Positions 14,101 through 52,067 of a stretch of 64,000 nt of DNA are shown here, piece after piece. Position 1 is the first letter of the stretch; every line of letters starts with the position of its first letter. The stretch comes from Rikenellaceae bacterium (GTDB lineage Bacteria; Bacteroidota; Bacteroidia; Bacteroidales; Rikenellaceae): assembly GCA_015060165.1 (NCBI GenBank), contig SUZC01000003.1:124001-188000 (forward strand). Direction: 5' to 3'. The position numbers and the translations under genes are program-made. Below the pieces are notes generated by a model, which searched no databases, was not told where the DNA came from, and saw nothing but the letters and a program-made list of their open reading frames with translations.

Positions 14101-14685
14101 ATGAAGAAATACTTATTTATTTTATTAGGCGTGTGGGCGTTGGGATTCAGTCAGGAATCGAGCGCTCAGAATTGGGCTGTCAAGAGCAACCTGCTTTACG
14201 ATGCCACTACATCTATCAATGTCGGTTTCGAGACTGCGTTGGCAGAGAAGTGGACATTTGATATGTCTGGTAACTGGAATCCCTTCCAGTTCTCGGATAA
14301 CAAGAAGTTTAAGCATTGGTTTGTGCAGCCGGAGGTTCGTTATTGGACTTGTCGCAAGTTTGGAGGTCATTTCTTGGCTGCTCATTTGTGGGGAGGTCAG
14401 TACAACGTAGGTAACATTTCTGGAATACCCGATTTCTTGGGTACAAATTTCTCACAGCTCGAGGACCATCGCTACGAAGGCTGGTTTGCAGGTTTTGGCG
14501 TTGGCTACGGTTACGCGTGGATGCTTGGTAAGCACTGGAACTTGGAGGCGCAGATTGGCGTAGGATATGCCTACACCAACTACGACAAGTACTTCTGCCC
14601 TAAATGTGGCGAGAAGATTGGCAACGGCGACCATCACTACATCGGCCCCACCAAGGCTGCTATCAATCTTGTATATCTCTTCTAA
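14101..14685 (+). CDS. DUF3575 domain outer-membrane protein
   Basis: A 194-aa protein with signal peptide (MKKYLFILLGVWALGFSQESSAQ) followed by the DUF3575 pattern: NWAVKSNLLYDATTSINVGFETALAEKWT, YWTCRKFGGHFLAAHLWGGQYN and a final INLVYLF ending in the aromatic residue typical of outer-membrane barrels. A CPKC pair near residue 170 might bind metal or form a disulfide. In Bacteroidales, DUF3575 genes regularly head fimbrial operons of the FimA/Mfa1 type, as here. The molecular role is not established. It is absent from locus B. Confidence 0.88.
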   Translation: MKKYLFILLGVWALGFSQESSAQNWAVKSNLLYDATTSINVGFETALAEKWTFDMSGNWNPFQFSDNKKFKHWFVQPEVRYWTCRKFGGHFLAAHLWGGQYNVGNISGIPDFLGTNFSQLEDHRYEGWFAGFGVGYGYAWMLGKHWNLEAQIGVGYAYTNYDKYFCPKCGEKIGNGDHHYIGPTKAAINLVYLF

Positions 14686-14697
14686 ATCTTGCGCGTT

Positions 14698-16167
14698 ATG
14701 AAAAGAACAATTCTTTATACTATAGGTGTTGCGATTGCTGCGATGATTGGCTTTACAGCTTCTGCGCAGCAGATTATGGAGGGTCAGGCCGAGGTTAAGA
14801 ATCTCAGCGTGACACGCGATCGCGACAACGGCATCGTCAATGTTGCTATGGATGTCGATATCAGCAGCCTCAATGTTGGCGCTGACGAGACTTTGATTCT
14901 CACTCCCGTTATCGAGAAGGGCGACAAGTCGGTTGAGATGCCATCGATCGAGATTATGGGCCGTCGCGCGTGGTTGTATTGGCTTCGCAATGGCGAGCAG
15001 ACTGTAACCGAGAATCCTCTCTATGCAGAGCGTGAGGCAAAGCGTGCCGAGCGTTTGGCAGGCCAGAAGCAGTCGGTTGCTTACTCTACCGAGCTCAAGT
15101 TCGAGCCTTGGATGAAGAGCGCCAATGTGGCCATCAAGGAGGGTAGCTGCGGTTGTTCTATGACTCCGCTTGCTTTGGGTCAGAGCCCGTTGCAGCGCAT
15201 CTTGCACGACCCTTATATTCCTCAGTACGTGTTGGCATTTGTTGAGCCCGCACCTGAGCCAGTCAAGGTTCGTGACGAGTCTCACTCTGCATACATCAAC
15301 TTCAAGGTCGACAAGTATGACATCTTGGAGGATTATAAGAGCAATGCAACCGAGTTGGCATCGATCCTCAATTCGATCGAGAAGGTAAAGCAGGACGAGG
15401 ACCTCACCATCACCTCTATTACTATCGAGGGTTGGGCATCACCCGAGGCTACTCAGGCTCACAACCAGCGACTCTCTCAGAATCGTGCTAATTCGCTCTC
15501 TGACTACGTATCGACTAAGACCGGCATCGAGCGCTCACGTATCGAGGCTATCGGTTGCGGTGAGGACTGGAAGGGCTTGCGCGAGTTGGTAGTTGCTACT
15601 CCACGCTTGCTCGATCAGCAGAAGGTATTGGCTCTTATCGACCGCACCGACCTTACTCTCGATCAGAAGGACAAGCAGCTCTCAGAGCTTATTCCTCCTA
15701 CCATCTATCAGCGTTTGATGAACGAGATGTATCCAAAGTTGCGTCGTAACGACTACCGCATTGTATATAATGTGCGCAATTTCAACCTCGAGGAGGCTCG
15801 CGCTCTTATCGACACCGATCCTCGCAAACTCTCTCTGGGAGAGATGTATAAGGTTGCGGGGTCGTACAAGAAGGGGTCGGCGGAGTATAACCACGTGATG
15901 GAGGTTGCGGCTAAGACCTATCCTACTCAGACCGCGGCGGCGGTAAATGCTGCGAGCGTGATGCTCGGCAAGGGCGACACCAACGGCGCATTGGCACTCT
16001 TGAGCAAGGCCGATCAGGGCGACAAGAACGTTCAGCTCACAATGGGTTACGCCTATGCGAAGGCCGGCAACAACGACAAGGCTCGCGAGTGCTGGCAGAA
16101 GGCAGCCGACAAGGGCTCAGCCGAGGCAAAGCACAACCTTTCGGAGTTGGCTAAGAGCCTGGAATAA
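14698..16167 (+). CDS. DUF3868 domain protein with OmpA-like region and C-terminal TPR-like repeats
   Basis: I start this at ATG 14698; a TTG three codons upstream is unlikely. The 489-aa product has a signal peptide (FTASAQQ), a beta-rich DUF3868 region, then an OmpA-like periplasmic segment near residues 200-275 (FKVDKYDILEDYKSN, ITIEGWASPEATQAHNQRLSQNRANSLSDYV), and TPR/Sel1-like helices from about residue 380 (MGYAYAKAGNNDKARECWQKAADKGSAEAKHNLSELAKSLE). It probably anchors or orients the fimbrial assembly at the envelope (inference). Only the last 113 codons recur at locus B, so recombination there would rebuild an intact gene. Confidence 0.87.
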   Translation: MKRTILYTIGVAIAAMIGFTASAQQIMEGQAEVKNLSVTRDRDNGIVNVAMDVDISSLNVGADETLILTPVIEKGDKSVEMPSIEIMGRRAWLYWLRNGEQTVTENPLYAEREAKRAERLAGQKQSVAYSTELKFEPWMKSANVAIKEGSCGCSMTPLALGQSPLQRILHDPYIPQYVLAFVEPAPEPVKVRDESHSAYINFKVDKYDILEDYKSNATELASILNSIEKVKQDEDLTITSITIEGWASPEATQAHNQRLSQNRANSLSDYVSTKTGIERSRIEAIGCGEDWKGLRELVVATPRLLDQQKVLALIDRTDLTLDQKDKQLSELIPPTIYQRLMNEMYPKLRRNDYRIVYNVRNFNLEEARALIDTDPRKLSLGEMYKVAGSYKKGSAEYNHVMEVAAKTYPTQTAAAVNAASVMLGKGDTNGALALLSKADQGDKNVQLTMGYAYAKAGNNDKARECWQKAADKGSAEAKHNLSELAKSLE

Positions 16168-16298
16168 AAAAGATTACAAATTTATACGAGTAATAAAAAC
16201 ACAAACAAATTAATTAACTTAACTTAAACTAATCGAATTATGAAAAGAATGTTTATTGCAGCTATGGCTATCGCAGCATTGGTAAGCTGTAGCAAGGA
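15830..16298 (+). repeat. Inverted homology tract 1, copy A (469 bp)
   Basis: This block matches the minus strand of 51599-52067 with no gaps and 5 mismatches. All mismatches fall in the first 161 bases; 15991-16298 (308 bases) is identical. It covers the 3' end of the DUF3868 gene, the intergenic spacer, and the first 59 bases of the fimbrillin gene (signal peptide). Confidence 0.97.
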
Positions 16299-17484
16299 CA
16301 ATGAGGACGTTATTTTGCAGTCTTCAAAGAAGAGCGTAGCTATTACAATTAGCAATGCTGTTCCTCAGACAAAAGCTGTTCCTGAGGTAACTCCTACAGC
16401 AAATGGAGGTGTAGCAACAATTGCAGCTCAGGAGAATAATCAAGTTGCTGCAGAGGTAGGTGAGCTTAGAGTTTTGTTTGCTAACAGCGCTGGTAATATC
16501 GTTGAGGCTTATTCTTTTGCAGACGCTGAAGAAGTTACTGCGGCTGATCCTAATCCAGAAACAGGTGATCCTGTAAATGGCAAGTATAAATACACATATC
16601 ATGCTGTTCACGAGTCTGTAACTCAGGTAGCTGTTGTTCGCTATGCTAGTATTACTGACGTAACTAAGTTTGTTGGTACTGCTTTGTCAACTTATGCTAC
16701 TGCTGCTGCCGTTGAGAATGACAATGCAGATCTTGACAATATTGATCTTTATGGCTCAGCAGATCTTGTTAACTCTGGTACAACTTGTAACGTGCCTTCT
16801 GAAAATCATCAGGAGACATATACATACCAGCTTTACACAGCAGATGTAACTGTAACTCCTGCTTTGGCACGTGTTGAGATTGCTGGCATCTCTTGTACAG
16901 ACCTTGGCGAAACTACATTCGAAGCAGCTACTGATGCTTCTGTAACAGGTGGTTTTGACGAGTTAGCTCTTGTTGACCTTGGTTGGGGAGCAACAACTCC
17001 AAAGTATACTTTTGCTTTCGCAAAGGAGACTACGACAGAGGGCGAGGGCGATGAGGCCAAAACTATCGTTACTTATACTGACGTTTTGAAGGGTGTTTAT
17101 AAGAAAGAGGGCGAGGATCGCAAGACTACTAAGCGTGCTCTTACTCCTTACGTTCCTGGTGCACCTGCACAGGATATGGCAATAGCTTGGAATGTAGCTC
17201 CACAGGCAGCTCCTTCTGCAACGACTCCTATGACACTTAATATGTTGGCGTCTGCTTATGACTATACAGTAAATACTCCTAATAAGACTTTGACTATTAC
17301 AGGTTTGAAGGATAAGAGTGGTAATGCTATTAGCAATTTTGAGCGTAGCAAGATCTATCGCATGAATATTAACTTCAAAGAGTCTAATCTTGATGTTTCA
17401 AATGAGGATATTTGTGTAGAGGTTAATGTAACAATTGCAAACTGGGTAGTTGTTCTCGTAGAGCCTTCTTTCAAGACTGAATAA
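16240..17484 (+). CDS. Major fimbrillin, FimA/Mfa1 type (locus A)
   Basis: A 414-aa lipoprotein precursor: MKRMFIAAMAIAALVSC gives a signal peptide with lipobox LVSC, followed by a Thr/Ala/Val-rich, beta-strand-rich body and a C-terminal strand ending VEVNVTIANWVVVLVEPSF. Export as lipoproteins and protease-triggered polymerisation by strand exchange is the known route for this superfamily. The wobble positions are A/T-rich compared with neighbours. The first 59 bases are identical to the locus B fimbrillin, after which the two proteins diverge. It is followed by a terminator before the anchor gene, as expected for the most abundant subunit. Confidence 0.88.
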   Translation: MKRMFIAAMAIAALVSCSKDNEDVILQSSKKSVAITISNAVPQTKAVPEVTPTANGGVATIAAQENNQVAAEVGELRVLFANSAGNIVEAYSFADAEEVTAADPNPETGDPVNGKYKYTYHAVHESVTQVAVVRYASITDVTKFVGTALSTYATAAAVENDNADLDNIDLYGSADLVNSGTTCNVPSENHQETYTYQLYTADVTVTPALARVEIAGISCTDLGETTFEAATDASVTGGFDELALVDLGWGATTPKYTFAFAKETTTEGEGDEAKTIVTYTDVLKGVYKKEGEDRKTTKRALTPYVPGAPAQDMAIAWNVAPQAAPSATTPMTLNMLASAYDYTVNTPNKTLTITGLKDKSGNAISNFERSKIYRMNINFKESNLDVSNEDICVEVNVTIANWVVVLVEPSFKTE

Positions 17485-17545
17485 TTTTATTTGAAATTTC
17501 AAGTTCTTTTCGGAGGGCTTAAAATTTATAAGGATTGATTTTTTC

Positions 17546-17580
17546 GGTGCCTCCCCTCAGGGGAGGGGAGGTGCTTTTTT
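17546..17580 (+). terminator. Intra-operon terminator after major fimbrillin (locus A)
   Basis: An 11-bp GC-rich stem (CCTCCCCT with AGGGGAGG at its core) followed by six T, between the major fimbrillin and the FimB/Mfa2 gene. Partial readthrough would give much major subunit and little anchor. The same hairpin, with a changed loop, lies at the same place in locus B. Confidence 0.85.
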
Positions 17581-17655
17581 AAGAAAATTTCCGCGACTCG
17601 TATAAAACCAAACAACATCTCTTAACAAGAGATAATAAACAAACACCAAAGGCCA

Positions 17656-18193
17656 CTTGGGCCACCAAATTAACCAACAGGCGCGCGTGCGCCCCAAAAA
17701 CGAATATGATTATGAAGAAATTTCTATACTTGCTTCTGCTTGCTCCGGTCGTTCTGCTCGCAAGCTGCATCAAGGAGGATTATAGTGATTGCGAGAGATG
17801 TACTCTTACATTCAGCTATACGGGCGATGTTACTTGGGATATCTTTCCTGAGCAGATTACTCGCGTCAGCTTGTATGTTTTCAACTCAGAAGATCGTTTG
17901 GTGCAGACCAAACTTATCGAGCAGAACGAACTGAAAGCATTTCAAGGAACGAAGCTCAACCTTGAGCCGGGCGATTATCGCATCGTCGGCATAGGCAACA
18001 GCTTCAACAAGACCGAGGTAATGAACCTCTCATCGACATCTATGTCCGAGATACAGTTCCACCACCCGAAGGCCGACGAAGGTGGCAAGGTAGAGGGTAA
18101 CGACTCACTGTATCTGGGCCAGAAGATGATCACCATCCCCTCGGACTATTGGTACGAGGATGATGTTCCCTTCCGTTCGTCACACCTCAAGGT
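17656..18193 (+). repeat. Inverted homology tract 2, copy A (538 bp, identical)
   Basis: Base-by-base comparison with the minus strand of 49781-50318 shows no difference. It covers the end of the spacer and about the first 160 codons of the FimB/Mfa2 gene; the 3' part of the gene is diverged between copies. Confidence 0.96.
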
Positions 18194-18623
18194 GTCGTAC
18201 ACAGTGAAGGATTATGTGAATCCCGTAGCAGCCGAGTCATCGACTCGCGCCGACGGATTCCTGGAGCTTCGCGTGAAGAATCTTTTGCCACAGACCGACT
18301 TTACCAACAAGGCCAACGGTCAGAAGATGACTTACGACCCCGTTTTGACCCTTAAGCCCGAGAAGGGCGAGCACTACGGCTACTTCAACATTATGCGCCA
18401 CGCGAAGGACTCGGACGTAGAGTTCGAGCTCGTCGACAAGGCGACAGGCGAGGTAGTTCACACACTTCTGTTGGCTGATTTCCTGAATCAGTTCCCGCAG
18501 ATTGATGTATCGAAGCAGGAAGTTTTGATTCCTATCATTGTGGAGTTCAAGAACATCGGCGTTACAGTCACCATCCCCGACTGGATGATCCACGACGTAA
18601 CACCAGACTACGGTAAAAACTAA
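17712..18623 (+). CDS. FimB/Mfa2 family fimbrial anchor lipoprotein (locus A)
   Basis: The start is placed at ATG 17712 (MKKFLYLLLLAPVVLLASC); ATG 17706 would only add two residues. The lipobox LASC is followed by CIKEDYSDCERCTLTFSYTGDV, and the body has the Mfa2/FimB look (VSLYVFNSEDRLVQT, LEPGDYRIVGIGN). Family members sit next to the major fimbrillin gene and anchor the shaft to the outer membrane, limiting its length. Residues up to about 160 are identical to the locus B protein, then the two differ by substitutions and a short insertion, a mosaic pattern typical of recombination. Confidence 0.93.
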   Translation: MKKFLYLLLLAPVVLLASCIKEDYSDCERCTLTFSYTGDVTWDIFPEQITRVSLYVFNSEDRLVQTKLIEQNELKAFQGTKLNLEPGDYRIVGIGNSFNKTEVMNLSSTSMSEIQFHHPKADEGGKVEGNDSLYLGQKMITIPSDYWYEDDVPFRSSHLKVSYTVKDYVNPVAAESSTRADGFLELRVKNLLPQTDFTNKANGQKMTYDPVLTLKPEKGEHYGYFNIMRHAKDSDVEFELVDKATGEVVHTLLLADFLNQFPQIDVSKQEVLIPIIVEFKNIGVTVTIPDWMIHDVTPDYGKN

Positions 18624-18637
18624 TCTTTTCGACAGCT

Positions 18638-19768
18638 ATGAAAAAGGTTTATATATATATTGCCGCTATGTGCCTCGCAGCCCTAACAGGGTGTATTAAG
18701 GAGGAGATTAGCACGCTTTCATATGTTGATCTCGACGTGAATGTCACTCGTGCAAATAATTCGTCGCAGCAGGGTGACCAGATTGAAGAGATTATGATCT
18801 GGGCTTTTGAGAAAAACACAAGCGGTGGCGTTGATAGTGATAAAATAGCTTCGGGTTGGAGAAGAGTATACAATCTTCAGAATACCTATACATCAACAAG
18901 TGTACATTTGCAGTTGCCGATGTGTGGATCAGGAGGTGCACAATATCGTTTGATAGCGATTGTCAACCCCGCGAAGTTTGGCGCAACAATAGATTTCAAT
19001 GGCAGTACTGAATATGGCCAGCTTACATCTGCCACATTTACCGCACCAGACGATTTAATGTCGGCTACCGAAGAGACAAATCCTGGTTCACCTGCGGTGA
19101 TGCCCGTATCGCATTGGGCAGATATTACTGTTGCTGAAAGCAATACTCACGAGAATACTGATAACACCTCGGGTTGGCAGCATTTTTCGGTAAATATGCC
19201 GGTTTTCCGTGCTGTAGCAAAGACTCAGTTTTTTGTGACTCGCAAGGGTGATTTTGATATCACTATAAATAATTTGGAACTTCGTTCTGGTAACATTCCG
19301 AACAACGGCGTGGTACTATCAGAGTCTGCTCCAGCTGATTTAGAGGCGAACGCTCCTGCTCTTGATTGGTTTTCATCGACTGCTCCTACATATGGTTCTG
19401 CTGTTAGTTACGATGTGTTGTCAGTGCCTACTGGCGGTGTGACAGGTTTAGTTGATGAGGCTGACGACAAAAATACAACATACACTCGTATTGGTTCTCG
19501 CATTATCTACGAAAGTGCAAACGTTGCTACCAGCGCTGAAAATTATGCCGAGCCCACCGATAAAGATGGATATTACTACTATATTAATTACACCATCGGC
19601 GAGGATTCGTTTGAAAAATATGTAGCCATTCCTTATGCAGTCGTCCGCAACCACGACTACCAGGTGCGTGCAACTATCGAGAACACCAAGACCGAGGTTA
19701 AATTCAGCGTTACCTACACGGTCAAGCCTTGGGTATCGCAGACAAACGATAATATTACCTTTAAATAA
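18638..19768 (+). CDS. Fimbrial accessory lipoprotein (locus A)
   Basis: A 376-aa lipoprotein (lipobox LTGC at residue 19) with the fimbrillin-type N-terminal fold: VDLDVNVTRAN, IEEIMIWAFEKN, LQLPMCGSGGAQYRLIAIVNP, and the common pre-C-terminal motif AIPYAVVRNHDYQVRATI. It is homologous to, but clearly diverged from, the 545-aa protein in locus B, which has an extra C-terminal domain of about 150 residues. By position it resembles the FimC/FimD or Mfa3/Mfa4 accessory subunits that lie between shaft and tip. It starts 14 bases after the anchor gene. Confidence 0.82.
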   Translation: MKKVYIYIAAMCLAALTGCIKEEISTLSYVDLDVNVTRANNSSQQGDQIEEIMIWAFEKNTSGGVDSDKIASGWRRVYNLQNTYTSTSVHLQLPMCGSGGAQYRLIAIVNPAKFGATIDFNGSTEYGQLTSATFTAPDDLMSATEETNPGSPAVMPVSHWADITVAESNTHENTDNTSGWQHFSVNMPVFRAVAKTQFFVTRKGDFDITINNLELRSGNIPNNGVVLSESAPADLEANAPALDWFSSTAPTYGSAVSYDVLSVPTGGVTGLVDEADDKNTTYTRIGSRIIYESANVATSAENYAEPTDKDGYYYYINYTIGEDSFEKYVAIPYAVVRNHDYQVRATIENTKTEVKFSVTYTVKPWVSQTNDNITFK

Positions 19769-19794
19769 TCAAACAGCTTAAAACCAAATAAGAT

Positions 19795-22695
19795 ATGAAA
19801 AGTCTAAAATATATATTTGCGTTGGCTTTCAGTGCGATTGTTATGGTTGGATGCGTCAAGGACGAGACCTTGCCGATGCCCAACGATGGCGTGACTCGAG
19901 TGCAGTTCCACCTGGGTTACTCTGTGCCTGATGCCGAGGTGGCTGTAAGCCGAGCAGACTTGGGTGCGGCCGCCGAAAACAGCGTCAACAACCTATATCT
20001 GTTGATTTTTGATGGTAATGGTAATCGTGTGAATCCGACCAACGGTGCGCTGCTTACTACCAATTCTGGCTTATCACAAACCAATAATAGCTTGGTTGCA
20101 GGTACCGTTACAAGCGATATCGTTGTAGAGGGCGCTGGCGATGCCTCGGACTTCAAGCTTTATGCTGTTGCAAATATTGCGGCAGACGATGGCAGCTCTA
20201 CTTATGGTGTGAATCAGAGTATGTTAGACGGTATTACATCGCTTGATGAACTTCAGAATGCCACAGCATCACTTTATGAGAACTCTCTATCTCGACCAAA
20301 TATTATTTTGAAAGTCGGAATGTTGGAGAGTGCTACGACTACCCAGGGAACCGATGGTGTTGTTGTTCGTTCAGGTCAGATTGTACTTCATCGTATCGAT
20401 GCCAAGATCACGTTTAATGTAAAGAATGGCAAGTACAACGGGTTAGATGTAATCTTTAAACCTGAATCATATCAGTTGATGAACATGCCAATGCAGAGCT
20501 ACTTGATTGAGCGATCAACCTCAGCGGCAGCGGCCAATGGAACTAATTATTCTGCGGTCTCGACCGAGACTACAAATAGTAATCCGTTGCAGTTTGAGTT
20601 CAACGCCACATCAAATGCTTATGACACCTTCACATTCTATATGCTGGAGAGCAATCTTGCTCCCAAGCAGGCACCAACAGCTTTCAATGACCGCGATCAG
20701 AAGTTGAAAAATGCTGATGGAACTTATGCCGGCACAGATGGCAATTGGGTGTGGAAGTATGCCAACGACGCTGCACCTTACGTGCAGATCAAGGGTAGTG
20801 TCGATATTCAGGGGCAGAACGAGATTATTCGTGCCGATGTAGTTTATAATGTCCACCTTGGATTTTTTAATACTACGCAGAACGTAAACGACTTCTTTAC
20901 CCAGCGTAATACACACTACACCTATAATCTCACCATTGAAGGCGTTCAGCAAATTCGTCTTGAGGTGACAAAAGTCGATAACCTTACAGATGACCCACAG
21001 TCTGGTGCCGAGGGTAATGTGGTAGTGGCTTCAAATATCCGCAATGTCGATTGTCACTACACCCAAATTATGCTTACTCTTAAAAAACCTGATGCAGATA
21101 ATGCCGATAAACTCTCTTGGTATGTGGATACTCCATACTCTACAGGACAATACACAGGGGAGAATGAGGAAGACTTTGACTATAAGTGGGTGGAGTTCTA
21201 TGTGCACGATAGTGCCACTACTACTATGGCTACCTATCAAACGGCTTACCGTAAAACTCATTATGTTGACAAGATTGTCGAAGAGATGAAGAAGTGGGCA
21301 AAAGGGGAAAGTACTCTGTTCAATAATGGCAGCGACACAGCTTATGTTACCGCCTTTATCAACGAGTTCTACTATGAGTATCCATTCCAATACGGCAATA
21401 TTGAAGTGCAGAAAGGTGAAGCAAAAGATAAATATGATAAATCTGGGTTGGTTACTATGATTAAGAAGTGCGTAAATGGCGATAGCCGCTATATGCATAT
21501 CCTTAGCGATATCGCATACAGCCCCGATGGCGATAGCTCTGAGACCAATTCACAAGTATCGATTATCCAGCGACCTATCCGCACAATTTACAATGTTGAC
21601 AAGATGGATGAAACCAATTACCTTATTTGGGGTACAGAGTCTGTAAATGAGACATATTATTTGATGAAAGGTTATATTCCATGGAATATTGGAGCAGATA
21701 GTAAGACAAATGGACTTAAAAACACAAACGCTCTATGGTTAGGCAATAGTCGTCCAACATCTAGTACCTTGTGGGAAACTTATATTAGTTATGATACGGG
21801 CTCTGATTTATCAAAAGAACCTGATGTTATAGCACAAGGGGATCAATTATCAATTTATGCTTGTATGTCGCGTAATCAGGATACTAATGGAAATGGCTCA
21901 ATTGATAAATCAGAGATTAAGTGGTATATGGCTGCTATCAATCAGTTGAGCGACCTATACGTTGGAGAATCAGGACTTGACCCAGAAGCAAAACTATATC
22001 CAGATGTTCTTAAAGACTTGCATAGTTCTCGTCCTGATGATGACAATCCTGATGATAGACAATTTTACCATTACCTTAGTAGCTTCCAGGGGGTTGATAA
22101 TAAATATAAAGGGACTATCCTATGGGCAGAGGAGTGTGTATCCTCAAGTAAGAATGCCACAGGATGGGGTACAGGTTCTGATGATCCAAATGGTGGTAGC
22201 GGTCGAGGATACGCTCGCCTTGTTCGCTGTTTAAGAAATTTAGGAGAAGATATAAATACAGGTGCAGATGTAACTCCATTGGTAAAGTACGATGCCCAAA
22301 CTCGCGTCTTCGATGCTACGATGATGAATCCGGCAGCATATAGAGAGAATAGGTGGGAGGGTAATATAACTGCAGGTAGCGACCAAAATGCAGGCTATAA
22401 TAAACCGAGAGCACGTTTTGAAATAGCTCCAAGTAGAAATTCTTCTGCCGGTCTTGGACATTGTCCATCTGGTTATAGGGAACCTTCTATGCGAGAGCTC
22501 GCGCTGATATTTTCGGCAATGGGCGATGAAATAACTCAAACTTATGGTTGTGTTACTTATTGTACGAATAAAGGTACAAGTGCAAGTGATTGGCAATATT
22601 ACAGAATTAACCCAAATGCTCAAGGTGGTAGATGTATTGAGCTATCTGCCAAAAACACAAATCAAAACTTCCGTTGTGTAAAAGACCTTGAATAA
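19795..22695 (+). CDS. Large fimbrial tip-type lipoprotein with C-terminal FISUMP/lectin-like domain (locus A)
   Basis: The 966-aa product starts with a lipoprotein signal (VMVGC) and a fimbrillin-like N-terminal domain (VRVQFHLGYSVPDAEVAVSRA-type segment, NNLYLLIFDGNGN). The middle (about residues 380-700) resembles DUF4906-type tip proteins. The C-terminus, GLGHCPSGYREPSMRELALIFS ... NQNFRCVKD, looks like the FISUMP/DUF1566-type fold with paired cysteines, related to lectin-like modules. By size and last position it is the candidate adhesin at the fimbrial tip. No close counterpart occurs in locus B, whose two large proteins are different. Confidence 0.78.
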   Translation: MKSLKYIFALAFSAIVMVGCVKDETLPMPNDGVTRVQFHLGYSVPDAEVAVSRADLGAAAENSVNNLYLLIFDGNGNRVNPTNGALLTTNSGLSQTNNSLVAGTVTSDIVVEGAGDASDFKLYAVANIAADDGSSTYGVNQSMLDGITSLDELQNATASLYENSLSRPNIILKVGMLESATTTQGTDGVVVRSGQIVLHRIDAKITFNVKNGKYNGLDVIFKPESYQLMNMPMQSYLIERSTSAAAANGTNYSAVSTETTNSNPLQFEFNATSNAYDTFTFYMLESNLAPKQAPTAFNDRDQKLKNADGTYAGTDGNWVWKYANDAAPYVQIKGSVDIQGQNEIIRADVVYNVHLGFFNTTQNVNDFFTQRNTHYTYNLTIEGVQQIRLEVTKVDNLTDDPQSGAEGNVVVASNIRNVDCHYTQIMLTLKKPDADNADKLSWYVDTPYSTGQYTGENEEDFDYKWVEFYVHDSATTTMATYQTAYRKTHYVDKIVEEMKKWAKGESTLFNNGSDTAYVTAFINEFYYEYPFQYGNIEVQKGEAKDKYDKSGLVTMIKKCVNGDSRYMHILSDIAYSPDGDSSETNSQVSIIQRPIRTIYNVDKMDETNYLIWGTESVNETYYLMKGYIPWNIGADSKTNGLKNTNALWLGNSRPTSSTLWETYISYDTGSDLSKEPDVIAQGDQLSIYACMSRNQDTNGNGSIDKSEIKWYMAAINQLSDLYVGESGLDPEAKLYPDVLKDLHSSRPDDDNPDDRQFYHYLSSFQGVDNKYKGTILWAEECVSSSKNATGWGTGSDDPNGGSGRGYARLVRCLRNLGEDINTGADVTPLVKYDAQTRVFDATMMNPAAYRENRWEGNITAGSDQNAGYNKPRARFEIAPSRNSSAGLGHCPSGYREPSMRELALIFSAMGDEITQTYGCVTYCTNKGTSASDWQYYRINPNAQGGRCIELSAKNTNQNFRCVKDLE

Positions 22696-22696
22696 T

Positions 22697-22869
22697 AAAA
22701 ACTCTTTTACAGGCCTGCTCTGATGGGCAGGCTTGTTTTGGGGGCCGAGGCGCTTCCGGAACCCGATATGACACGCCTGGGAGCCTGGGCTCTGCACTTT
22801 GCAGCGCAGGTAGTGTCGAAGCCAAGCGTAAACAAGTTTACGCCTAATCTGAAATCCCAATTTTATTCC
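22697..22869 (+). repeat. Inverted homology tract 3, copy A (3' end of locus A)
   Basis: About 173 bases match the minus strand of 43073-43243 with a short divergent patch near 22745-22765; the last 100 bases are essentially identical. It includes a terminator hairpin and the near-palindrome GCGTAAACAAGTTTACGC. Confidence 0.93.
22713..22740 (+). terminator. Terminator of fimbrial locus A (first)
   Basis: GCCTGCTC and GGGCAGGC pair around TGAT and are followed by TTGTTTTG, 17 bases after the tip gene stop. Confidence 0.7.
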
Positions 22870-22871
22870 CT

Positions 22872-22902
22872 CCCCGCAGCCCACGGTTGCGGGGATTTTT
22901 TT
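22872..22902 (+). terminator. Terminator of fimbrial locus A (second, strong)
   Basis: CCCCGCA pairs with TGCGGGG followed by A and seven T. It lies just beyond homology tract 3; locus B has a different terminator at the matching place. Confidence 0.85.
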
Positions 22903-43030: not shown

Positions 43031-43040
43031 CTGTGCCCAG

Positions 43041-43070: not shown

Positions 43071-43072
43071 AA

Positions 43073-43243: not shown

Positions 43244-43251
43244 CGGATTAA

Positions 43252-45366: not shown

Positions 45367-45396
45367 AATCGAAAAATTGTTACAAGGTTAGTTTGT

Positions 45397-47673
45397 TTAT
45401 CTTGGCTGGTCTCCCCAAGTAAAAGCTGTCAAGGTATTAGCATTTGTAGACTTTACCCTTTCCGATCCCCAATACCAATCATCGTATACACAGCGGACAG
45501 CGTGGTCTCCAGATGTTCCCTCTACCAACCTTACACCTCCACTGCTAAGGGGGTACGCTACACCATGAGCACACCAATAATCACCTTTAGGATCGTCTTG
45601 ATCATCATTAAATAGTTTGGGGATAATTCCTTTGGCAGATAATAATACAATATATTCCAGTTCCGCTTTTGTAGGCATACGCCAACGACCGGCAGGATAG
45701 CCATCCTCCTGATATGATGCGCATCTTCGTTTCATGTTGTCATAACTTTGATCAGTTGTTACACCATACGATGATGCTATTCTAAACTTTGGAGCAATCA
45801 TATTCTCTGTCGCGTCTGAATTATCGGTTGAATAATAATATTTCAGTCGACGATTTTGAGCATTATCATACAATGCTGGGGCTGAAGCACTTCCATTTCC
45901 CCAATTATTCAAATTATCATAATCAGTTGTACGTGGGTCACCAATAGAATATGTGCCGTCTGCAAATGCTGTCGTTGTAATTGTATACATATTGGGATTA
46001 GCATTGGTTGCACTTCCCAAGCCGTGAACTCCTCCTAAATTAGATCCGTTGTTTACCCAAACATATCCTTTATGAGCATTATCATTATCGTTATTGCTAT
46101 CATTCTTGTAGTCACTATTCAAATAAGCTTCAACATACATAGCAGGATACTGTGTGAATGTTATGGTCTCAGAGAATGATGTATTATCCGTATGATAAAT
46201 TTTGGCAGTAATAGTATACGCTGCATAGTCAAAGGCATTACTATTATTATCATTCACTAAAGTATGTGATAATGTTATCGTTTTATTCAAATCCTTAAGT
46301 TCAAAGGGATTTGTATTACCTCGACCGTTGGTATCCACCGTAGGCTCTACTACCATCTTGTTGTCAGAAGTAGGCTCATATGTATTCGTAGTAGCTACTT
46401 TGCCTGAGAAATTGGGCTTAGTAACAGAGATAATCTCAAGAGTTACGGGATGGCTTGATGCATAAGGAATACTATATGAGTTAACATTATTCATAACAAC
46501 CTTATTCTCATCCACCACCAGATAGCGGGCCTCCTTGATATCGGTAGTAATTGAGCCGGTGCTCCAATCGATAACGGTGTAGCTGGGGGTAATCTCAGTG
46601 GCAGTCTGGGGCTCGAAGCTACCCATAGTACCTACGTTGATCTTCACCTTATAGTAGTGGTTGCGCTTGATCTGCTTATCATCGAGGCTACCCACAGGAA
46701 TCTGATAAAAGGTGTTCTGCTGAGATGTAGAACCATTTTTAACCCAAGGCACCACCAAAAGCAAGTAAGGCTCGTTAGCGCCACCTGCAGCACCCCAGTC
46801 AGAAGCATAGCTGTAGAATGGATGAGCCTGGTTGTAGGCCTTTTTGTCGGTTACGGTTGTATCACGAGCAAAACCATAGTCCTTCTGAGTGTTATCGTTA
46901 GCAAACTTCGCCTTGTCATAAGCGCCGTCAATATATGAGCCACCCACGGCATAATTGAGGCTAACAAGAATTGTTGAGCCATCATCGTTGTCGCCAAGTA
47001 CTGGGGTCCAGGTCTCACCACCCACAGTTACAGATGACACAACATCGGTAATCGAAAGCTCGATCTTAGCAGCCGCACGGGTGAGGGCTACTGTGCCACC
47101 TATCTCATTATTTGTCTTTGTGATTTTGTCCTCGCCATCCATCACGAAAGAGCTCTGGGCGCTAGATGGGGTTGTTGTGGTCTTCCACGAAGTGGTGCTG
47201 ATGGTACAGGCCTTAAGTTCAGCCATCGTAGGAAGAGTCTCGCCCTCTGCCAAGCCCTCATAAGTGGGAAGCGTACCCGCGGGAGCATTGGCAACAACAT
47301 ACAAAGTCGCTTGCGAAGTGTTAGTATTGAATATCGCGCTCACAATATTTGAGGGGATAGTCAATTCCGAAATTGTAGCCTCCTCGCGTTGGTTGGTAAA
47401 TATCTGTCGGTGATGCCATACCGCATTGCCAGAGCCTTCGCCGTCAAAGAAGTATAGATCGGCCGATATGATAGCATCCTCTTTCAAGTTGTCATCATTT
47501 TCGCCAGTGCCTACACCATTTCCAGGGGTTGTCGCACGTGTCATCGTGCTACTCACCAGACGCAATGCCATATGTCCTTCAGCATTGGGATTTACAACAT
47601 CCTCGCTCTTCGTACACGCGGCGATGCACGAAATCATCACGAAGCTTAAAATATATGTAAAGTATCTTTTCAT
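45397..47673 (-). CDS. Fimbrial lipoprotein with C-terminal FISUMP/DUF1566-like domain (locus B)
   Basis: The 758-aa lipoprotein (IAAC) has an Mfa-like N-terminal region (GHMALRLVSSTMTRA, ISADLYFFDGEG, ATLYVVANAPAG), the motif KRNHYYKVKINVGTM before a middle beta domain, and a C-terminal part with RWRMPTKAELEYIVLLSAKG ... DHAVRCVYDDWYWG that resembles FISUMP/DUF1566 modules. The same class of C-terminal module ends the 966-aa protein of locus A, so adhesive specificity may reside here. It has no direct counterpart by position in locus A, which has one fewer gene. Confidence 0.75.
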   Translation of the reverse strand: MKRYFTYILSFVMISCIAACTKSEDVVNPNAEGHMALRLVSSTMTRATTPGNGVGTGENDDNLKEDAIISADLYFFDGEGSGNAVWHHRQIFTNQREEATISELTIPSNIVSAIFNTNTSQATLYVVANAPAGTLPTYEGLAEGETLPTMAELKACTISTTSWKTTTTPSSAQSSFVMDGEDKITKTNNEIGGTVALTRAAAKIELSITDVVSSVTVGGETWTPVLGDNDDGSTILVSLNYAVGGSYIDGAYDKAKFANDNTQKDYGFARDTTVTDKKAYNQAHPFYSYASDWGAAGGANEPYLLLVVPWVKNGSTSQQNTFYQIPVGSLDDKQIKRNHYYKVKINVGTMGSFEPQTATEITPSYTVIDWSTGSITTDIKEARYLVVDENKVVMNNVNSYSIPYASSHPVTLEIISVTKPNFSGKVATTNTYEPTSDNKMVVEPTVDTNGRGNTNPFELKDLNKTITLSHTLVNDNNSNAFDYAAYTITAKIYHTDNTSFSETITFTQYPAMYVEAYLNSDYKNDSNNDNDNAHKGYVWVNNGSNLGGVHGLGSATNANPNMYTITTTAFADGTYSIGDPRTTDYDNLNNWGNGSASAPALYDNAQNRRLKYYYSTDNSDATENMIAPKFRIASSYGVTTDQSYDNMKRRCASYQEDGYPAGRWRMPTKAELEYIVLLSAKGIIPKLFNDDQDDPKGDYWCAHGVAYPLSSGGVRLVEGTSGDHAVRCVYDDWYWGSERVKSTNANTLTAFTWGDQPR

Positions 47674-47688
47674 ATTGCAATGCGTATA

Positions 47689-49326
47689 TTAGTTTTGAGA
47701 TAATGAACCTGTCTGTAATATCTTTTGTCTAACGCCGTCGGTCAACACATCGGTTGGAAGCGTACGGCCATCGGGAGTTACCACCACAATCGAGAGGAAA
47801 GCCTCGGTGTTGCTAGGTACAGTCGCCTGCTTTGCACGAATCTTGATTGTAGACTTTACTGGCAGACCATTTTCGTCCTTCGCGCCAACTGCGCCACTTA
47901 TAGTTGAGACACCGTTTCCACCAGCACCAACAAACTCAAAGGCATTGATAGCACCCTCCACTAAAGCTGCATGCCACTCGGCATCATCGGGAGTACTGAT
48001 GTAGAACTCGCAAACCGCATAAGGAGTACTGTTGTTGTTTGAGTCAGCTGCCGCAAGAGTTACGGTATTAACACCGTTTGCTTCCGATTCGCTGGCTTTT
48101 GCAGTCCACTTCAACTGATTCTCACCCTCTACGGTTACCTGCTCGGTGTAATTATAGGTCACTTCATCCTCTTTCCACTCGTTCACTACGAGGTTAAGCG
48201 AGAGCTTACCGCCGGCATCGACCAAAGCACGCACCTGATAGTCGTGGTTGCGAACGACTTTGCCAAGAGGAGTATATACCTCGTATTCTTCATCGTTAAC
48301 CGAATACTTAACATAGAGGTTATATCCATCACCTTGAGCAGCATCATAACAGCCTGTCTCACCGTAATCAGCATCATTATTGTTTTCGAACAAGAATGTT
48401 GAACCTATCCAAGCATATGTAGCATCATCGCCATGATCATCGGCAGAAACTTCCGTTGTAACATTATTTACTGGAGAAAAACCGCTATCGCTATTCTTAA
48501 GCTGATATGTTATGGCTGGTGCAGTTGCGCCCTCGGCACGTGTTACTGCTGTTGGCGATGCCCACCACCAAGTAGTGGCTGCCGCATCAGGCAGACCGCG
48601 CTGAATCTTCTCAGAATTATCTCCGTCAGCGGTCTCTGGACTTGCTGTTAGCAATGCACCTGTAGAGTAACCGCTGTTTGCTACAACCTTAACATCCAAG
48701 ATATCAAGATCGAAATCATCAGTAGCTTTGGCAACCAAGAACTGAGCCTTGCTCACTGTGCGATAAACTGGGAGGTTGAGTTGATAACAATTATCGTCGT
48801 GTGTATTATTACTTGTAACGGTAAATGTTGTCCAGTTAGATATTGGCATCACCTCAGGAGTCCTACCCACGTCGTTAGGATAAGTACTCCAAAATGTGCC
48901 AGTACTATCAAATGTAGCAGCTTTGATTGCGCCCCAAGTGCTATCTGAGGTCAGGCTGAAGTTACCATAGGCCTGAGTATTGATAACTGCTACCAAGAGA
49001 TAATCCTGTGCGCCATCACAAAGAGGCAGAGGCACATGTACCGAGATGCGACCATAGGTATCAAGGTCATACACATAGCGAGCACCTATAGCCGTAGCAC
49101 TATCTCCGATTGTAGGAGCACCAGTGTCATCGATCGTACACTGGAATGCCCAAATCATAGCATCAGTAATCGCGTCACCCTGCACAACACTTCCATTCTC
49201 TTCTGTTGGGGTGAGATTTACATTGATCTCCGCAACCTCACGCGTATAACTCTCCTCCTTTACGCACGATGTAAGGAGTGCGGCGAGGCAAGCAACTGCA
49301 GATAATATATATGTAATCTTTTTCAT
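47689..49326 (-). CDS. Fimbrial accessory lipoprotein (locus B)
   Basis: A 545-aa lipoprotein (LTSC) homologous to the 376-aa locus A protein: AEINVNLTPTEE, ITDAMIWAFQC, VHVPLPLCDGAQDYLLVAVIN and TPLGKVVRNHDYQVRALV. It carries an additional C-terminal domain of about 150 residues (from TEQVTVEGENQLKWTAKASES) absent in locus A, probably an Ig-like fold. It lies 15 bases after the FimB/Mfa2 gene. Confidence 0.8.
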   Translation of the reverse strand: MKKITYILSAVACLAALLTSCVKEESYTREVAEINVNLTPTEENGSVVQGDAITDAMIWAFQCTIDDTGAPTIGDSATAIGARYVYDLDTYGRISVHVPLPLCDGAQDYLLVAVINTQAYGNFSLTSDSTWGAIKAATFDSTGTFWSTYPNDVGRTPEVMPISNWTTFTVTSNNTHDDNCYQLNLPVYRTVSKAQFLVAKATDDFDLDILDVKVVANSGYSTGALLTASPETADGDNSEKIQRGLPDAAATTWWWASPTAVTRAEGATAPAITYQLKNSDSGFSPVNNVTTEVSADDHGDDATYAWIGSTFLFENNNDADYGETGCYDAAQGDGYNLYVKYSVNDEEYEVYTPLGKVVRNHDYQVRALVDAGGKLSLNLVVNEWKEDEVTYNYTEQVTVEGENQLKWTAKASESEANGVNTVTLAAADSNNNSTPYAVCEFYISTPDDAEWHAALVEGAINAFEFVGAGGNGVSTISGAVGAKDENGLPVKSTIKIRAKQATVPSNTEAFLSIVVVTPDGRTLPTDVLTDGVRQKILQTGSLSQN

Positions 49327-49341
49327 CGTCGTAGTCCTTAA

Positions 49342-50262
49342 TTATTCAACTTCTCCGTAAATAGGATCGCGATCCTCAATCAACCAGTCTGGGACTGTAA
49401 CAGTGACACCCATACCGAACTCAATGATGATAGGAATCAAAACCTCCTGCTTCGATACATCAATCTGTGGGAAATGATTCAGGAAGTCGGCCAAAGCGAG
49501 AGTATACACTACCTCACCTGTTACCTTGTCGACGAGCTCGAACTCTACGTCCGAATCCTTCGCGTGGCGCATAATGTTGAAGTAGCCGTAGTGCTCATTT
49601 TCCTCAGAATCAAAAGTCAAAACGGGGTCGTAAGTCATCTTCTGACCATTGGCCTTGTTGGTAAAGTCGGTCTGTGGCAACAAGTTTTTAACTCTTAAAT
49701 CCAATGATGCACCGGCACGAGTAGCAGACTCAGCAGCTGGTGGAGCTGATGGATTTAAATAATTCTTCACAGTGAACGATACCTTGAGGTGTGACGAACG
49801 GAAGGGAACATCATCCTCGTACCAATAGTCCGAGGGGATGGTGATCATCTTCTGGCCCAGATACAGTGAGTCGTTACCCTCTACCTTGCCACCTTCGTCG
49901 GCCTTCGGGTGGTGGAACTGTATCTCGGACATAGATGTCGATGAGAGGTTCATTACCTCGGTCTTGTTGAAGCTGTTGCCTATGCCGACGATGCGATAAT
50001 CGCCCGGCTCAAGGTTGAGCTTCGTTCCTTGAAATGCTTTCAGTTCGTTCTGCTCGATAAGTTTGGTCTGCACCAAACGATCTTCTGAGTTGAAAACATA
50101 CAAGCTGACGCGAGTAATCTGCTCAGGAAAGATATCCCAAGTAACATCGCCCGTATAGCTGAATGTAAGAGTACATCTCTCGCAATCACTATAATCCTCC
50201 TTGATGCAGCTTGCGAGCAGAACGACCGGAGCAAGCAGAAGCAAGTATAGAAATTTCTTCAT
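49342..50262 (-). CDS. FimB/Mfa2 family fimbrial anchor lipoprotein (locus B)
   Basis: Starting at the ATG ending at 50262 (two residues inside the longest frame), this 306-aa protein is identical to the locus A anchor over about the first 160 residues and at DNA level across 538 bases. After HLKVS the two copies differ (FTVKNYLNPSAPPAAESATRAGA against YTVKDYVNP-type sequence) but then share long matching blocks such as NLLPQTDFTNKANGQKMTYD. The mosaic pattern points to gene conversion between the two loci. Confidence 0.93.
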   Translation of the reverse strand: MKKFLYLLLLAPVVLLASCIKEDYSDCERCTLTFSYTGDVTWDIFPEQITRVSLYVFNSEDRLVQTKLIEQNELKAFQGTKLNLEPGDYRIVGIGNSFNKTEVMNLSSTSMSEIQFHHPKADEGGKVEGNDSLYLGQKMITIPSDYWYEDDVPFRSSHLKVSFTVKNYLNPSAPPAAESATRAGASLDLRVKNLLPQTDFTNKANGQKMTYDPVLTFDSEENEHYGYFNIMRHAKDSDVEFELVDKVTGEVVYTLALADFLNHFPQIDVSKQEVLIPIIIEFGMGVTVTVPDWLIEDRDPIYGEVE

Positions 50263-50318
50263 AATCATATTCGTTTTTGGGGCGCACGCGCGCCTGTTGG
50301 TTAATTTGGTGGCCCAAG
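49781..50318 (-). repeat. Inverted homology tract 2, copy B (538 bp, identical)
   Basis: Identical to the plus strand of 17656-18193; it covers the 5' half of the anchor gene and the spacer end. Confidence 0.96.
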
Positions 50319-50360
50319 GGACCGTTTGTTATACGAGTATTTTTTCGCGGGAATTTTCTT

Positions 50361-50395
50361 AAAAAAGCACCTCCCCTCCCGCGAGGGGAGGCACC
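50361..50395 (-). terminator. Intra-operon terminator after major fimbrillin (locus B)
   Basis: Minus-strand hairpin with CCTCCCCTC/GAGGGGAGG-type stem followed by six T; same place and stem as in locus A, with GCGG instead of AGGG in the loop region. Confidence 0.85.
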
Positions 50396-50463
50396 GAAAA
50401 AATCAATCCTTATAAATTTTAAGCCCTCCGAAAAGAACTTGAAATTTCAATTAAATTTGGAGA

Positions 50464-51657
50464 TTACTTCTCTGCATCAGCTGAACCTGATGTTGAACCT
50501 GGAGTACCGTAAACTGGGTAACGCTTCTCGATAGCCCAAGGAATAACCTCTACAGTAACTACAACGCAGATACCGTCTTGAGTCTTGATATCTGACTGTG
50601 CAAACTCAAGGTCGAGTGTGTAAATCTTACCAGCCTCTAATGTATTACCATCAGCTGTTTCAGCATTCGCTGTCTTCTTAAGACCAGTTACTGTCAAAGG
50701 AAGGTTGCGGCTTGCAATAATGTAATCGTATGCATAAGCATCCATATCCAGCTTCATACCAGTAAATGTACAAGGAGCTACATTCCAAGACCAAGCACCA
50801 TTAGGAGCATATGAGTTAGAACGCTGCTCAGCATCTGGCTGAGTGTTAGGATCCTCTGCTGCAGTTTCAGGGTTATACTCACCATAGAGACGCTGCTCGC
50901 CGAAACCAGGAGCTGAGTGCTCGTCCTCTGCGCCTGTCCAAGTAAGGCTCTTGAGAAGCAACTCATCGATATCATAAGTATCAGGATCGCCATCATTGTT
51001 CAATTTGCCAAGGTCTGTACAAGTAATGCTGTGAACCTCCAAACGAGCTACCTTAGGAGCAACCTCTACATCAGCCTGCCATACGTGGAAGAAAGTAGCA
51101 CCTACACGGTGAGTTGCACCTGTATCAAAGAGAGTATTAACGCCATAAAGAACGATATCCTCAGTTTCACGAGCCAAATTCTTAGACTCGCTCTTAGCCA
51201 AAGCCAAGAGAGTAGAGAGATTATCACCTACGAAATTATCCTTACCCTCTGGAAGATCACTAGCCTCATAGCGAACAACTGCAATCTGCTTTACATCAGC
51301 AGGAACATTGTGCCACATATACTTGCTTGTAGACTCATCTTTAACGTAGAGCTCCTCCTCACCAGCAGCGCCTACCTCACCCTTATGAGTATCATCAGTA
51401 GAACCTTCACTTGTCAAGTAGTCCTCAAATGTAATAGTACCATCAGCCTTAGCGAAGAGCACCTTAAGCTCATCGTTGGTAGCAGTAGTTGTAGTACCCT
51501 TAGCAGTATCACCACCCTCAGCACGAGTACCCTCAGTCTCGTTAAGGATAGAGATCTGGATAGTCTTGCTCATTGAGTCAGCGTAAGAAACTTCCTCCTC
51601 CTTGCTACAGCTTACCAATGCTGCGATAGCCATAGCTGCAATAAACATTCTTTTCAT
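50464..51657 (-). CDS. Major fimbrillin, FimA/Mfa1 type (locus B, alternative)
   Basis: A 397-aa fimbrillin whose first 19 residues, including the lipobox LVSC, are the same as in the locus A protein; thereafter it diverges strongly (KEEEVSYADSMSKTIQISILNETEGTRAEGG). Shared body features include ADGTITFEDYL, QIAVVRYEASDLP, RLEVHSITCTDLG and a closing ICVVVTVEVIPWAI, so it is a true allele-like variant of the same subunit. It has no promoter of its own that I can find. It would be expressed after recombination at tract 1. Confidence 0.88.
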   Translation of the reverse strand: MKRMFIAAMAIAALVSCSKEEEVSYADSMSKTIQISILNETEGTRAEGGDTAKGTTTTATNDELKVLFAKADGTITFEDYLTSEGSTDDTHKGEVGAAGEEELYVKDESTSKYMWHNVPADVKQIAVVRYEASDLPEGKDNFVGDNLSTLLALAKSESKNLARETEDIVLYGVNTLFDTGATHRVGATFFHVWQADVEVAPKVARLEVHSITCTDLGKLNNDGDPDTYDIDELLLKSLTWTGAEDEHSAPGFGEQRLYGEYNPETAAEDPNTQPDAEQRSNSYAPNGAWSWNVAPCTFTGMKLDMDAYAYDYIIASRNLPLTVTGLKKTANAETADGNTLEAGKIYTLDLEFAQSDIKTQDGICVVVTVEVIPWAIEKRYPVYGTPGSTSGSADAEK

Positions 51658-52067
51658 AATTCGATTAGTTTAAGTTAAGTTAATTAATTTGTTTGTGTTT
51701 TTATTACTCGTATAAATTTGTAATCTTTTTTATTCCAGGCTCTTAGCCAACTCCGAAAGGTTGTGCTTTGCCTCGGCTGAGCCCTTGTCGGCTGCCTTCT
51801 GCCAGCACTCGCGAGCCTTGTCGTTGTTGCCGGCCTTCGCATAGGCGTAACCCATTGTGAGCTGAACGTTCTTGTCGCCCTGATCGGCCTTGCTCAAGAG
51901 TGCCAACGCGCCGTTGGTGTCGCCCCTGCCGAGCATCACGCTCGCCGCATTTACCGCCGCCGCGGTCTGAGTAGGATAGGTCTTGGCCGCAACCTCCATC
52001 ACGTGGTTATACTCCGCCGACCCCTTCTTGTACGATCCCGCAACCTTATACATCTCTCCCAGAGAGA
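51599..52067 (-). repeat. Inverted homology tract 1, copy B (469 bp)
   Basis: Ungapped minus-strand match to 15830-16298 with 5 mismatches, all between 51907 and 52067; 51599-51906 is identical. Confidence 0.97.
51730..52067 (-). pseudogene. 3' fragment of DUF3868 gene at the edge of locus B
   Basis: The last 112-113 codons of a DUF3868 gene (SLGEMYKVAGSYKKGS to NLSELAKSLE) without the signal peptide, DUF3868 or OmpA-like regions. An in-frame TTG at 52093-52095 gives a 121-residue frame but lies beyond the homology and has no leader, so I treat it as a non-functional remnant. Its value is as homology: recombination with the intact gene at 14698-16167 regenerates a full gene in either orientation. 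Confidence 0.88.

What the first reader, a model, noticed from the sequence alone, without database searches (positions are those of the whole stretch)
14101..52067. Expression locus and inverted silent cassette for fimbrial switching
Seen: locus A (plus) has a promoter, DUF3575, complete DUF3868, fimbrillin, anchor, accessory and tip genes. Locus B (minus) has a second fimbrillin, anchor, accessory and two large tip-type genes, but no recognisable promoter, no DUF3575 and only the 3' third of DUF3868. The junction tracts match in exact register (15830-16298 with 51599-52067). Inference: crossing over in the 308-bp identical part inverts about 35.6 kb, keeps DUF3868 intact, and swaps the whole subunit set behind the single promoter. 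Housekeeping genes (dnaG, smpB, xerC) ride in the invertible arm. The switched unit is not just a promoter but the main subunit repertoire.
Basis: partly seen in the sequence, partly recalled or inferred. Interest (0 to 1): 0.93.

Follow-up and report, generated by a model that had tools for sequence, protein, structure and literature searches.

The report
Chromosome-arm flip swapping whole pili
A gut Alistipes bacterium carries two full sets of pilus genes facing each other about 35 kb apart, only one of them behind a recognisable promoter, and matching DNA at their edges would let the cell flip the stretch between them and likely swap its whole pilus; a related species carries a smaller version of the same layout.

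Summary
All 1019 inverted exact 25-mers in the window link locus A with locus B; tracts 15830-16298 / 51599-52067 match without gaps, 5 substitutions, 308 bases identical. Locus B has no Bacteroidota-type promoter match in 900 bp and follows a terminator-like hairpin. Relatives make it more than one oddity: in G114 a 3-kb promoter-DUF3575-DUF3868 head lies between two oppositely oriented fimbrillin genes with 103-bp inverted leader tracts; in G112 identical inverted contig ends inside the anchor gene flank two tail-to-tail subunit sets. No flipped arm was seen: the sister species has the same backbone order and lacks locus B. Verdict: a predicted recombination switch for whole type V pilus sets, a new variant of a known kind, not yet shown to flip.

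The parts
13815..13844 (+). Bacteroidota-type promoter match (TTG-N19-TACTTTTG) before DUF3575
   Evidence: Motif present upstream of DUF3575 in 17 of 20 heads; 13826-13870 aligns at 89% with the sister species
14101..14685 (+). DUF3575 protein (head)
   Evidence: PF12099 258.5 bits
14689..16167 (+). DUF3868 / OmpA / TPR protein (head)
   Evidence: PF12984 30.8 bits, PF00691 35.7 bits
15830..16298 (+). 5' homology tract, copy A: DUF3868 3' end, spacer, fimbrillin leader
   Evidence: 469 nt, 5 mismatches to copy B
16240..17484 (+). Stalk pilin (fimbrillin) A
   Evidence: Model pLDDT 78.5; best PDB matches are Bacteroidota adhesion/fimbrial proteins
17483..17596 (+). Post-fimbrillin two-hairpin element with T-run, copy A
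   Evidence: 96% to copy B; 17488-17580 folds at -33.8 kcal/mol, z -3.45
17645..18223 (+). Anchor-gene homology tract, copy A
   Evidence: 579 nt, 538 identical at 17656-18193
17706..18623 (+). Anchor Mfa2 A
   Evidence: PF08842 123.5 bits
18638..19768 (+). Accessory lipoprotein A
   Evidence: Position and leader only; no Pfam or NCBIfam hit
19795..22695 (+). Large tip-type protein A
   Evidence: Position; relatives in the same place in G022 and G014; no Pfam hit
22698..22902 (+). 3' border tract, copy A
   Evidence: 93% to copy B; two copies in this genome, none in 36 other genomes
16299..51598 (.). Arm between the 5' tracts; carries GH97, xerC, hpf, dnaG, smpB, tsaB, GH20, GH109, trpB-like and others
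   Evidence: Pfam scans of its 16 non-pilus genes
43042..43243 (-). 3' border tract, copy B
43252..45366 (-). Tip-type protein B2
   Evidence: P_gingi_FimA domain 25.5 bits; FimD_tip_adhes 48 bits, below cut-off
45397..47673 (-). Tip adhesin B1 (FimD family)
   Evidence: NF052322 433.8 bits, cut-off 170
47689..49326 (-). Accessory lipoprotein B
   Evidence: Position; relatives at 51-57% identity in G135 and G022
49342..50268 (-). Anchor Mfa2 B
   Evidence: PF08842 136.5 bits
49751..50329 (-). Anchor-gene homology tract, copy B
50345..50458 (-). Post-fimbrillin two-hairpin element, copy B
   Evidence: 50361-50453 folds at -34.8 kcal/mol, z -3.70
50464..51657 (-). Stalk pilin (fimbrillin) B, 34% identical to A
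   Evidence: model pLDDT 73.6, PDB matches include the FimA type V pilus
51599..52067 (-). 5' homology tract, copy B, with the DUF3868 remnant (open frame 51730-52095)
52101..52135 (-). Terminator-like hairpin between the vanX-like gene and locus B
   Evidence: One site found, shuffles mean 0.6; 52104-52143 folds at -19 kcal/mol, z -5.2

Best explanation
Locus A is a type V pilus operon behind the only recognisable promoter and locus B is a second, promoterless pilus subunit set facing it about 35 kb away; homologous recombination between their matching tracts would invert the arm between them and likely swap which set is expressed. Shown from sequence: one promoter-DUF3575-DUF3868 head, two divergent bodies (stalk, anchor, accessory, tip), in-register tracts of 469 and 579 bp, and a terminator-like hairpin before locus B. 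Inferred: a crossover at 15991-16298 inverts 35.3-35.9 kb, keeps the DUF3868 frame and puts fimbrillin B with its anchor, accessory and tip genes behind the head. Inferred: a crossover in the anchor tract (17656-18193) inverts 31.6-32.7 kb and exchanges only the tail, so the two zones would give up to four stalk-by-tail combinations. The recombination is predicted to be RecA-type, because the tracts are long and coding and the only recombinase gene found in the arm is XerC-like and keeps its place beside hpf in relatives. Untested: that flipping occurs, its rate, and expression.
For: Tract geometry and exclusivity. Promoter match before A and in 17 of 20 heads, none in 900 bp before fimbrillin B; hairpin there. 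Mosaic anchor gene: 5' 487 nt 100% identical between A and B, 3' half 78%, while the nearest other genome (G001) is 77% in the 5' half. Recurrence: G114 has the head between two oppositely oriented fimbrillins with 103-bp inverted arms, 2 mismatches, that end just past the lipobox as in the window; G112 contig ends are the same 141 bp, inverted, inside Mfa2, around two tail-to-tail sets; G014 and G101 carry two bodies with contig breaks in Mfa2 or near the leader. 4 of 31 distinct full leaders among 202 listed fimbrillin relatives occur with both A-type and B-type bodies. B genes are intact frames.
Against: No flipped arm in any genome seen. Sister G001 has the window's backbone order and no locus B, so locus B may be a recent arrival with no switching history. 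In one search (180 Alistipes genomes) the window's 126-aa frame is the only truncated DUF3868 frame under 290 aa away from a contig start. In G112, G014 and G101 no close head was found, so a shared head is not shown there; the C7-C8 link in G114 is inferred. In G112 the anchor 5' part is 95.7% alike between copies but 95.7-96.8% to G145 and G092 too, and in G114 the 5' half (85%) is less alike than the 3' half (92%), so the window's mosaic is not repeated there. Two identity islands around a divergent stalk gene fit gene conversion as well. Read type of the 23-contig assembly is unknown.
Confidence: 0.57

Rival explanations
1. Locus B is a silent donor: gene conversion or double crossover moves fimbrillin B, or the whole body, into locus A without inverting the arm, as pilS feeds pilE in Neisseria (recalled).
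For: Homologous borders on both sides of the fimbrillin (I2 and I5/I1) and of the whole body (I2 and the 3' border). Patchy identity in the anchor gene. G114 fimbrillins too are flanked on both sides, 103 bp at 98% and 94 bp at 91%. The fimbrillin A cluster holds 8 member sequences, fimbrillin B one sequence on 20 contigs.
Against: Only one donor copy in the genome. In G114 the head sits between the two bodies, a geometry that inversion explains directly.
Confidence: 0.24
2. Locus B is an inert remnant or recent insert: a beheaded second pilus operon at the vanX site, kept alike to A at a few places by chance recombination, with no switching role.
For: Sister lacks it; G015, G105 and G106 have a head and body downstream of vanX, the site of locus B, so B could be a resident that lost its head; a beheaded copy was seen in 1 of 180 genomes.
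Against: All five B genes are intact; tracts identical over 308 and 538 bp; inverted two-body layouts in G114 and G112.
Confidence: 0.15
3. Misassembly or strain mixture joined two pilus loci of different strains.
For: Genome is a draft of 23 contigs; identical tracts of 538 bp are hard for short reads.
Against: No N; locus B is joined to trpB and vanX, neighbours in the sister; the exact fimbrillin B is on 20 contigs, the longest 276,091 bases, longer than the window's contig of 208,103.
Confidence: 0.04

Closest known systems
Moraxella bovis pilA inversion (PMC9585708, passages read)
   Same: Two pilin versions in inverted orientation; inversion joins a constant 5' end to either body; reads of both phases were seen in culture.
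   Different: There the 3' end of one pilin gene flips over a few kb, by the Piv recombinase (recalled). Here a whole stalk-anchor-accessory-tip set and about 35 kb with housekeeping genes would move, and no dedicated recombinase was found.
Campylobacter fetus sapA S-layer switch (recalled; two searches found no paper on it)
   Same: One promoter, inverted homologs with a conserved 5' region, RecA-dependent inversion.
   Different: There a promoter segment flips between single S-layer genes; here the promoter stays and multigene bodies move. In G114 the head itself would flip, closer to sapA.
[quoted passage not shown] type V pili (PMC12632263, passages)
   Same: Same order, surface genes, inversion into an expression site; phase-variable fimbriae are mentioned.
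   Different: Passages seen speak of invertase-driven systems and invertible promoters; none names a whole pilus set exchanged through coding tracts.
Neisseria pilE/pilS (recalled)
   Same: Silent partial copy with shared 5' sequence.
   Different: One complete multigene body in inverted orientation, not several 5'-truncated gene copies.
B. thetaiotaomicron BT4233-BT4236 (PMC10434189, passages)
   Same: DUF3868 and DUF3575 genes side by side, near BT4227, an Mfa1-type gene.
   Different: No second body or inversion mentioned in the passages seen.

Membership tests
Type V pilus operon | Stalk with type V pilin fold | tested here: met
   B: 6kmf FimA pilus at rank 5, E 4.8e-7; A: Bacteroidota fimbrial/adhesion proteins first, FimA 6jzk at rank 8, E 1.4e-3; TM-scores only about 0.3-0.5
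Type V pilus operon | Mfa2-type anchor | tested here: met
   PF08842 in both loci
Type V pilus operon | Tip adhesin | tested here: met
   Locus B tip 1, 433.8 bits; locus A tip has no family hit
RecA-type inversion switch (sapA-like) | One promoter, inverted copies with shared 5' tract | tested here: met
RecA-type inversion switch (sapA-like) | Both orientations exist | tested here: inconclusive
   No flipped arm seen; one genome per species
RecA-type inversion switch (sapA-like) | RecA dependence | not testable with these tools
   Needs a deletion strain
Site-specific inversion (Piv/Hin/Mpi type) | Dedicated recombinase beside the invertible piece | tested here: not met
   16 of 16 non-pilus arm genes scanned with Pfam; only the XerC-like gene, which sits beside hpf also in G001, G014, G015; it scores 283.6 bits against an XerC cut-off of 335
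Site-specific inversion (Piv/Hin/Mpi type) | Short defined crossover site | tested here: not met
   Homology is 469 and 579 bp of mostly coding DNA
pilE/pilS-type gene conversion | Silent copy without promoter | tested here: met
pilE/pilS-type gene conversion | Several silent copies | tested here: not met
   Two Mfa2 places in the whole genome

The most novel reading that the evidence does not exclude
A pilus shuffling system found across Alistipes: one promoter-DUF3575-DUF3868 head serves two inverted type V pilus bodies, with two crossover zones (fimbrillin leader and anchor gene) that let stalk and tip modules be exchanged separately, giving up to four pili from two loci; the invertible piece ranges from 3 kb (G114) through about 16 kb (G112) to 35 kb with essential genes (window).
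Probability: 0.38. Interest if true: 0.78.

Novelty: new variant of a known kind. Interest (0 to 1): 0.63.

Why it matters
Known pilin inversion switches flip a promoter or the end of one gene. Here the exchanged unit would be the whole stalk-anchor-tip set, without a dedicated recombinase and with essential genes in the inverted arm. If true, the pilus of an Alistipes cell cannot be read off its gene content, assemblies would tend to break at these loci (as in G112, G014 and G101), and adhesion would vary within one clone. It can be tested by PCR or existing long reads.

Tried and rejected
Invertible promoter at locus A: only 10-19 nt inverted repeats of modest quality around it and no recombinase gene beside it; not pursued. 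Search for a flipped relative: trpB and uxuA were located in 11 and 10 of 14 genomes and contexts of some were fetched; these genes and the pilus operon lie at differing places, so no clean flip of this arm was found. G015 has vanX-head-body-GH97-xerC-hpf, the order a flip would give at the vanX end, but with its own head there, so it is no proof. Truncated DUF3868 proteins: 12 hits, of which P0242 and P0245 look truncated near the window's break, but on contigs of 2.2-2.6 kb; not counted as evidence. G068, G070 and G162 also have two Mfa2 matches, at 33-39%, and were not examined. The five A/B mismatches against seven relatives gave no clear direction of conversion. Identity of the head to the sister shows no sharp break at 15830: 0.89 just before, 0.81, 0.73 and 0.76 after. 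Literature: ten searches; searches list no paper whose title or shown abstract start describes a pilus inversion in Alistipes; most subscription journals are not held, and five papers were opened as passages only.
Full report
What is there. The window is G000:C14:124001-188000 in a 2.19-Mb genome of 23 contigs; contig C14 has 208,103 bases. In the named collection 8 of 10 loci found with the DUF3868 protein are Alistipes sp. MAGs from ruminants; the other two are weak matches in other phyla. G001 contig C32 has the length (33,608) of JAFTVW010000035.1, a roe deer Alistipes. The window has six inverted pairs of 40 nt or more, all between locus A and locus B; 1019 of 1019 inverted exact 25-mers link the two loci.

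The two loci. Locus A: promoter match 13815-13844, DUF3575, DUF3868/OmpA/TPR, fimbrillin A, Mfa2 anchor, accessory lipoprotein, one 966-aa tip-type protein. Locus B, other strand: fimbrillin B, Mfa2, accessory lipoprotein, a FimD tip adhesin (433.8 bits, cut-off 170) and a second tip-type protein, all open frames. Before fimbrillin B only about 23% of DUF3868 remains, behind a terminator-like hairpin (the scan finds one such site where shuffles give 0.6, but the fold has z -5.2). TTG-N17-23-TAnnTTTG lies within 500 bp upstream of DUF3575 in 17 of 20 heads (not in L021, L022, G106); 2000 shuffles of the window's own 500 bp hit it in 5.4%; none lies in the 900 bp before fimbrillin B.

Stalk identity. 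Fimbrillins A and B are 34% identical. Neither has a Pfam hit; B has a sub-threshold Mfa1-family hit. Models (pLDDT 78.5 and 73.6) match Bacteroidota adhesion and fimbrial structures first; the FimA pilus 6kmf is rank 5 for B (E 4.8e-7), FimA 6jzk rank 8 for A (E 1.4e-3). TM-scores are about 0.3-0.5, so this is fold-level support only.

Mosaic homology. Besides the 469-bp 5' tract there are a 114-bp post-fimbrillin element (96%), a 579-bp anchor tract with 538 identical bases followed by 83%, and a 205-bp 3' border at 93%. In the anchor gene the 5' 487 nt are identical between A and B and the 3' half is 78%; the nearest other genome, G001, is 77% in the 5' half. So these loci recombined recently in this lineage. 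The 3' border has two copies here and none in 36 other genomes. The same comparison in relatives is mixed: G112 copies are 95.7% alike over 277 nt of the 5' part and 56% in the 3' part, but that 5' part is as close to G092 and G145; G114 copies are 85% and 92%.

Where locus B lies. In the sister G001 trpB and vanX are about 90 bp apart with nothing between, and uxuA is followed by head and body. In G014 uxuA is followed about 90 bp later by GH97 with no pilus genes. In G015, G105 and G106 a head and body lie downstream of vanX, the site of locus B. So the window has bodies at both sites seen and a head at one. Its backbone order is that of the sister: no flip is seen.

Recurrence. In G114 one contig holds fimbrillin 1 (-), DUF3868 (-), DUF3575 (-), fimbrillin 2 (+). 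The two fimbrillin starts share 103-bp inverted arms, two mismatches, from the 5' UTR to just past the lipobox; the only promoter match in 14105-14954, either strand, points towards DUF3575. Inverting that 3-kb head would hand it to the other body. The contig stops after fimbrillin 2; a second Mfa2 (88% over 1057 columns) with an accessory gene is at the end of C8, and joining the two is inference. In G112 a 16,099-bp contig starts and ends in the same 141 bp, inverted, inside Mfa2, and holds two tail-to-tail accessory-tip-tip sets; such an overlap is what a k-mer assembler leaves at a repeat (recalled). G014 has two bodies whose contigs begin or end in the same 141 bp of Mfa2; G101 has two bodies with breaks 88 bp before the fimbrillin and in Mfa2. 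No head close to the window's was found in G112, G014 or G101. Mfa2 matches: 38 of 180 genomes, 8 of them with two; five of those eight were examined (G000, G014, G101, G112, G114).

Leaders and modules. Of 202 listed fimbrillin relatives with a full leader there are 31 distinct leaders; four occur with both A-type and B-type bodies, and 30 protein pairs have bodies at least 80% identical but leaders differing at five or more residues. Types follow from which search listed the protein, and each list is the best 120 of 173 or 188. This fits exchange at the leader and does not tell inversion from conversion. By best match, stalk/accessory/tip types come as A/A/B in six loci, A/B/B in two, B/B/A in one, B/A/B in one and B/B/B in three of 20 loci examined, the other seven being incomplete; many matches are 25-40% identical and some near ties (G085, G105, G145).

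Mechanism. The tracts are in register, so a crossover at 15991-16298 keeps the DUF3868 frame and the fimbrillin start, inverts 35.3-35.9 kb and puts set B behind the head. One in 17656-18193 exchanges only the tail. All 16 non-pilus arm genes were scanned; the one recombinase is XerC-like (283.6 bits, XerC cut-off 335) and sits beside hpf also in G001, G014 and G015. RecA-type recombination is therefore the inferred route. Flipping itself is untested.

Comparison. It works like the Moraxella bovis pilA inversion (PMC9585708, passages) and, from recall, C. fetus sapA, but the unit would be a whole pilus set. [quoted passage not shown] this architecture is not in the passages I read.

Noticed in passing
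17488-17580 (+) and 50361-50453 (-); L084, L085: A two-hairpin element with T-run follows the stalk gene in both loci and, nearly unchanged, in G114 (both copies) and G101; part of it in G015. It may be an attenuator that sets the stalk to anchor ratio.
   Followed up: partly
40867-41074: Part of the GH109-trpB spacer matches unrelated places in G015 (two on C6) and G016 (C279): a dispersed repeat or RNA of the genus.
   Followed up: no
L117, L029-L030, L095, L099: Pilus operons change site in the genus: none between uxuA and GH97 in G014; beside vanX in G015, G105, G106.
   Followed up: partly
G000:C18:64019-64345: A distant DUF3868-type paralog (30%, open frame 522 aa) elsewhere in the same genome, with similar ones in several relatives.
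   Followed up: no
26693-26780: Two tandem 44-nt copies (86% alike) at and just after the 3' end of xerC.
   Followed up: no
16240-17484 and 50464-51657: Fimbrillin B is one sequence on 20 contigs; the fimbrillin A cluster has 8 member sequences and its entry P0001, which differs from the window at one residue, is on one contig of 4,516 bases. The loci may vary at different rates.
   Followed up: no
L084:3125-3202, 11945-12005, 14738-14878; L085:9268-9375: ACGTCATTCCCCG-type palindromic repeats flank the G114 pilus genes and lie near one G101 body; they could be extra recombination points.
   Followed up: no
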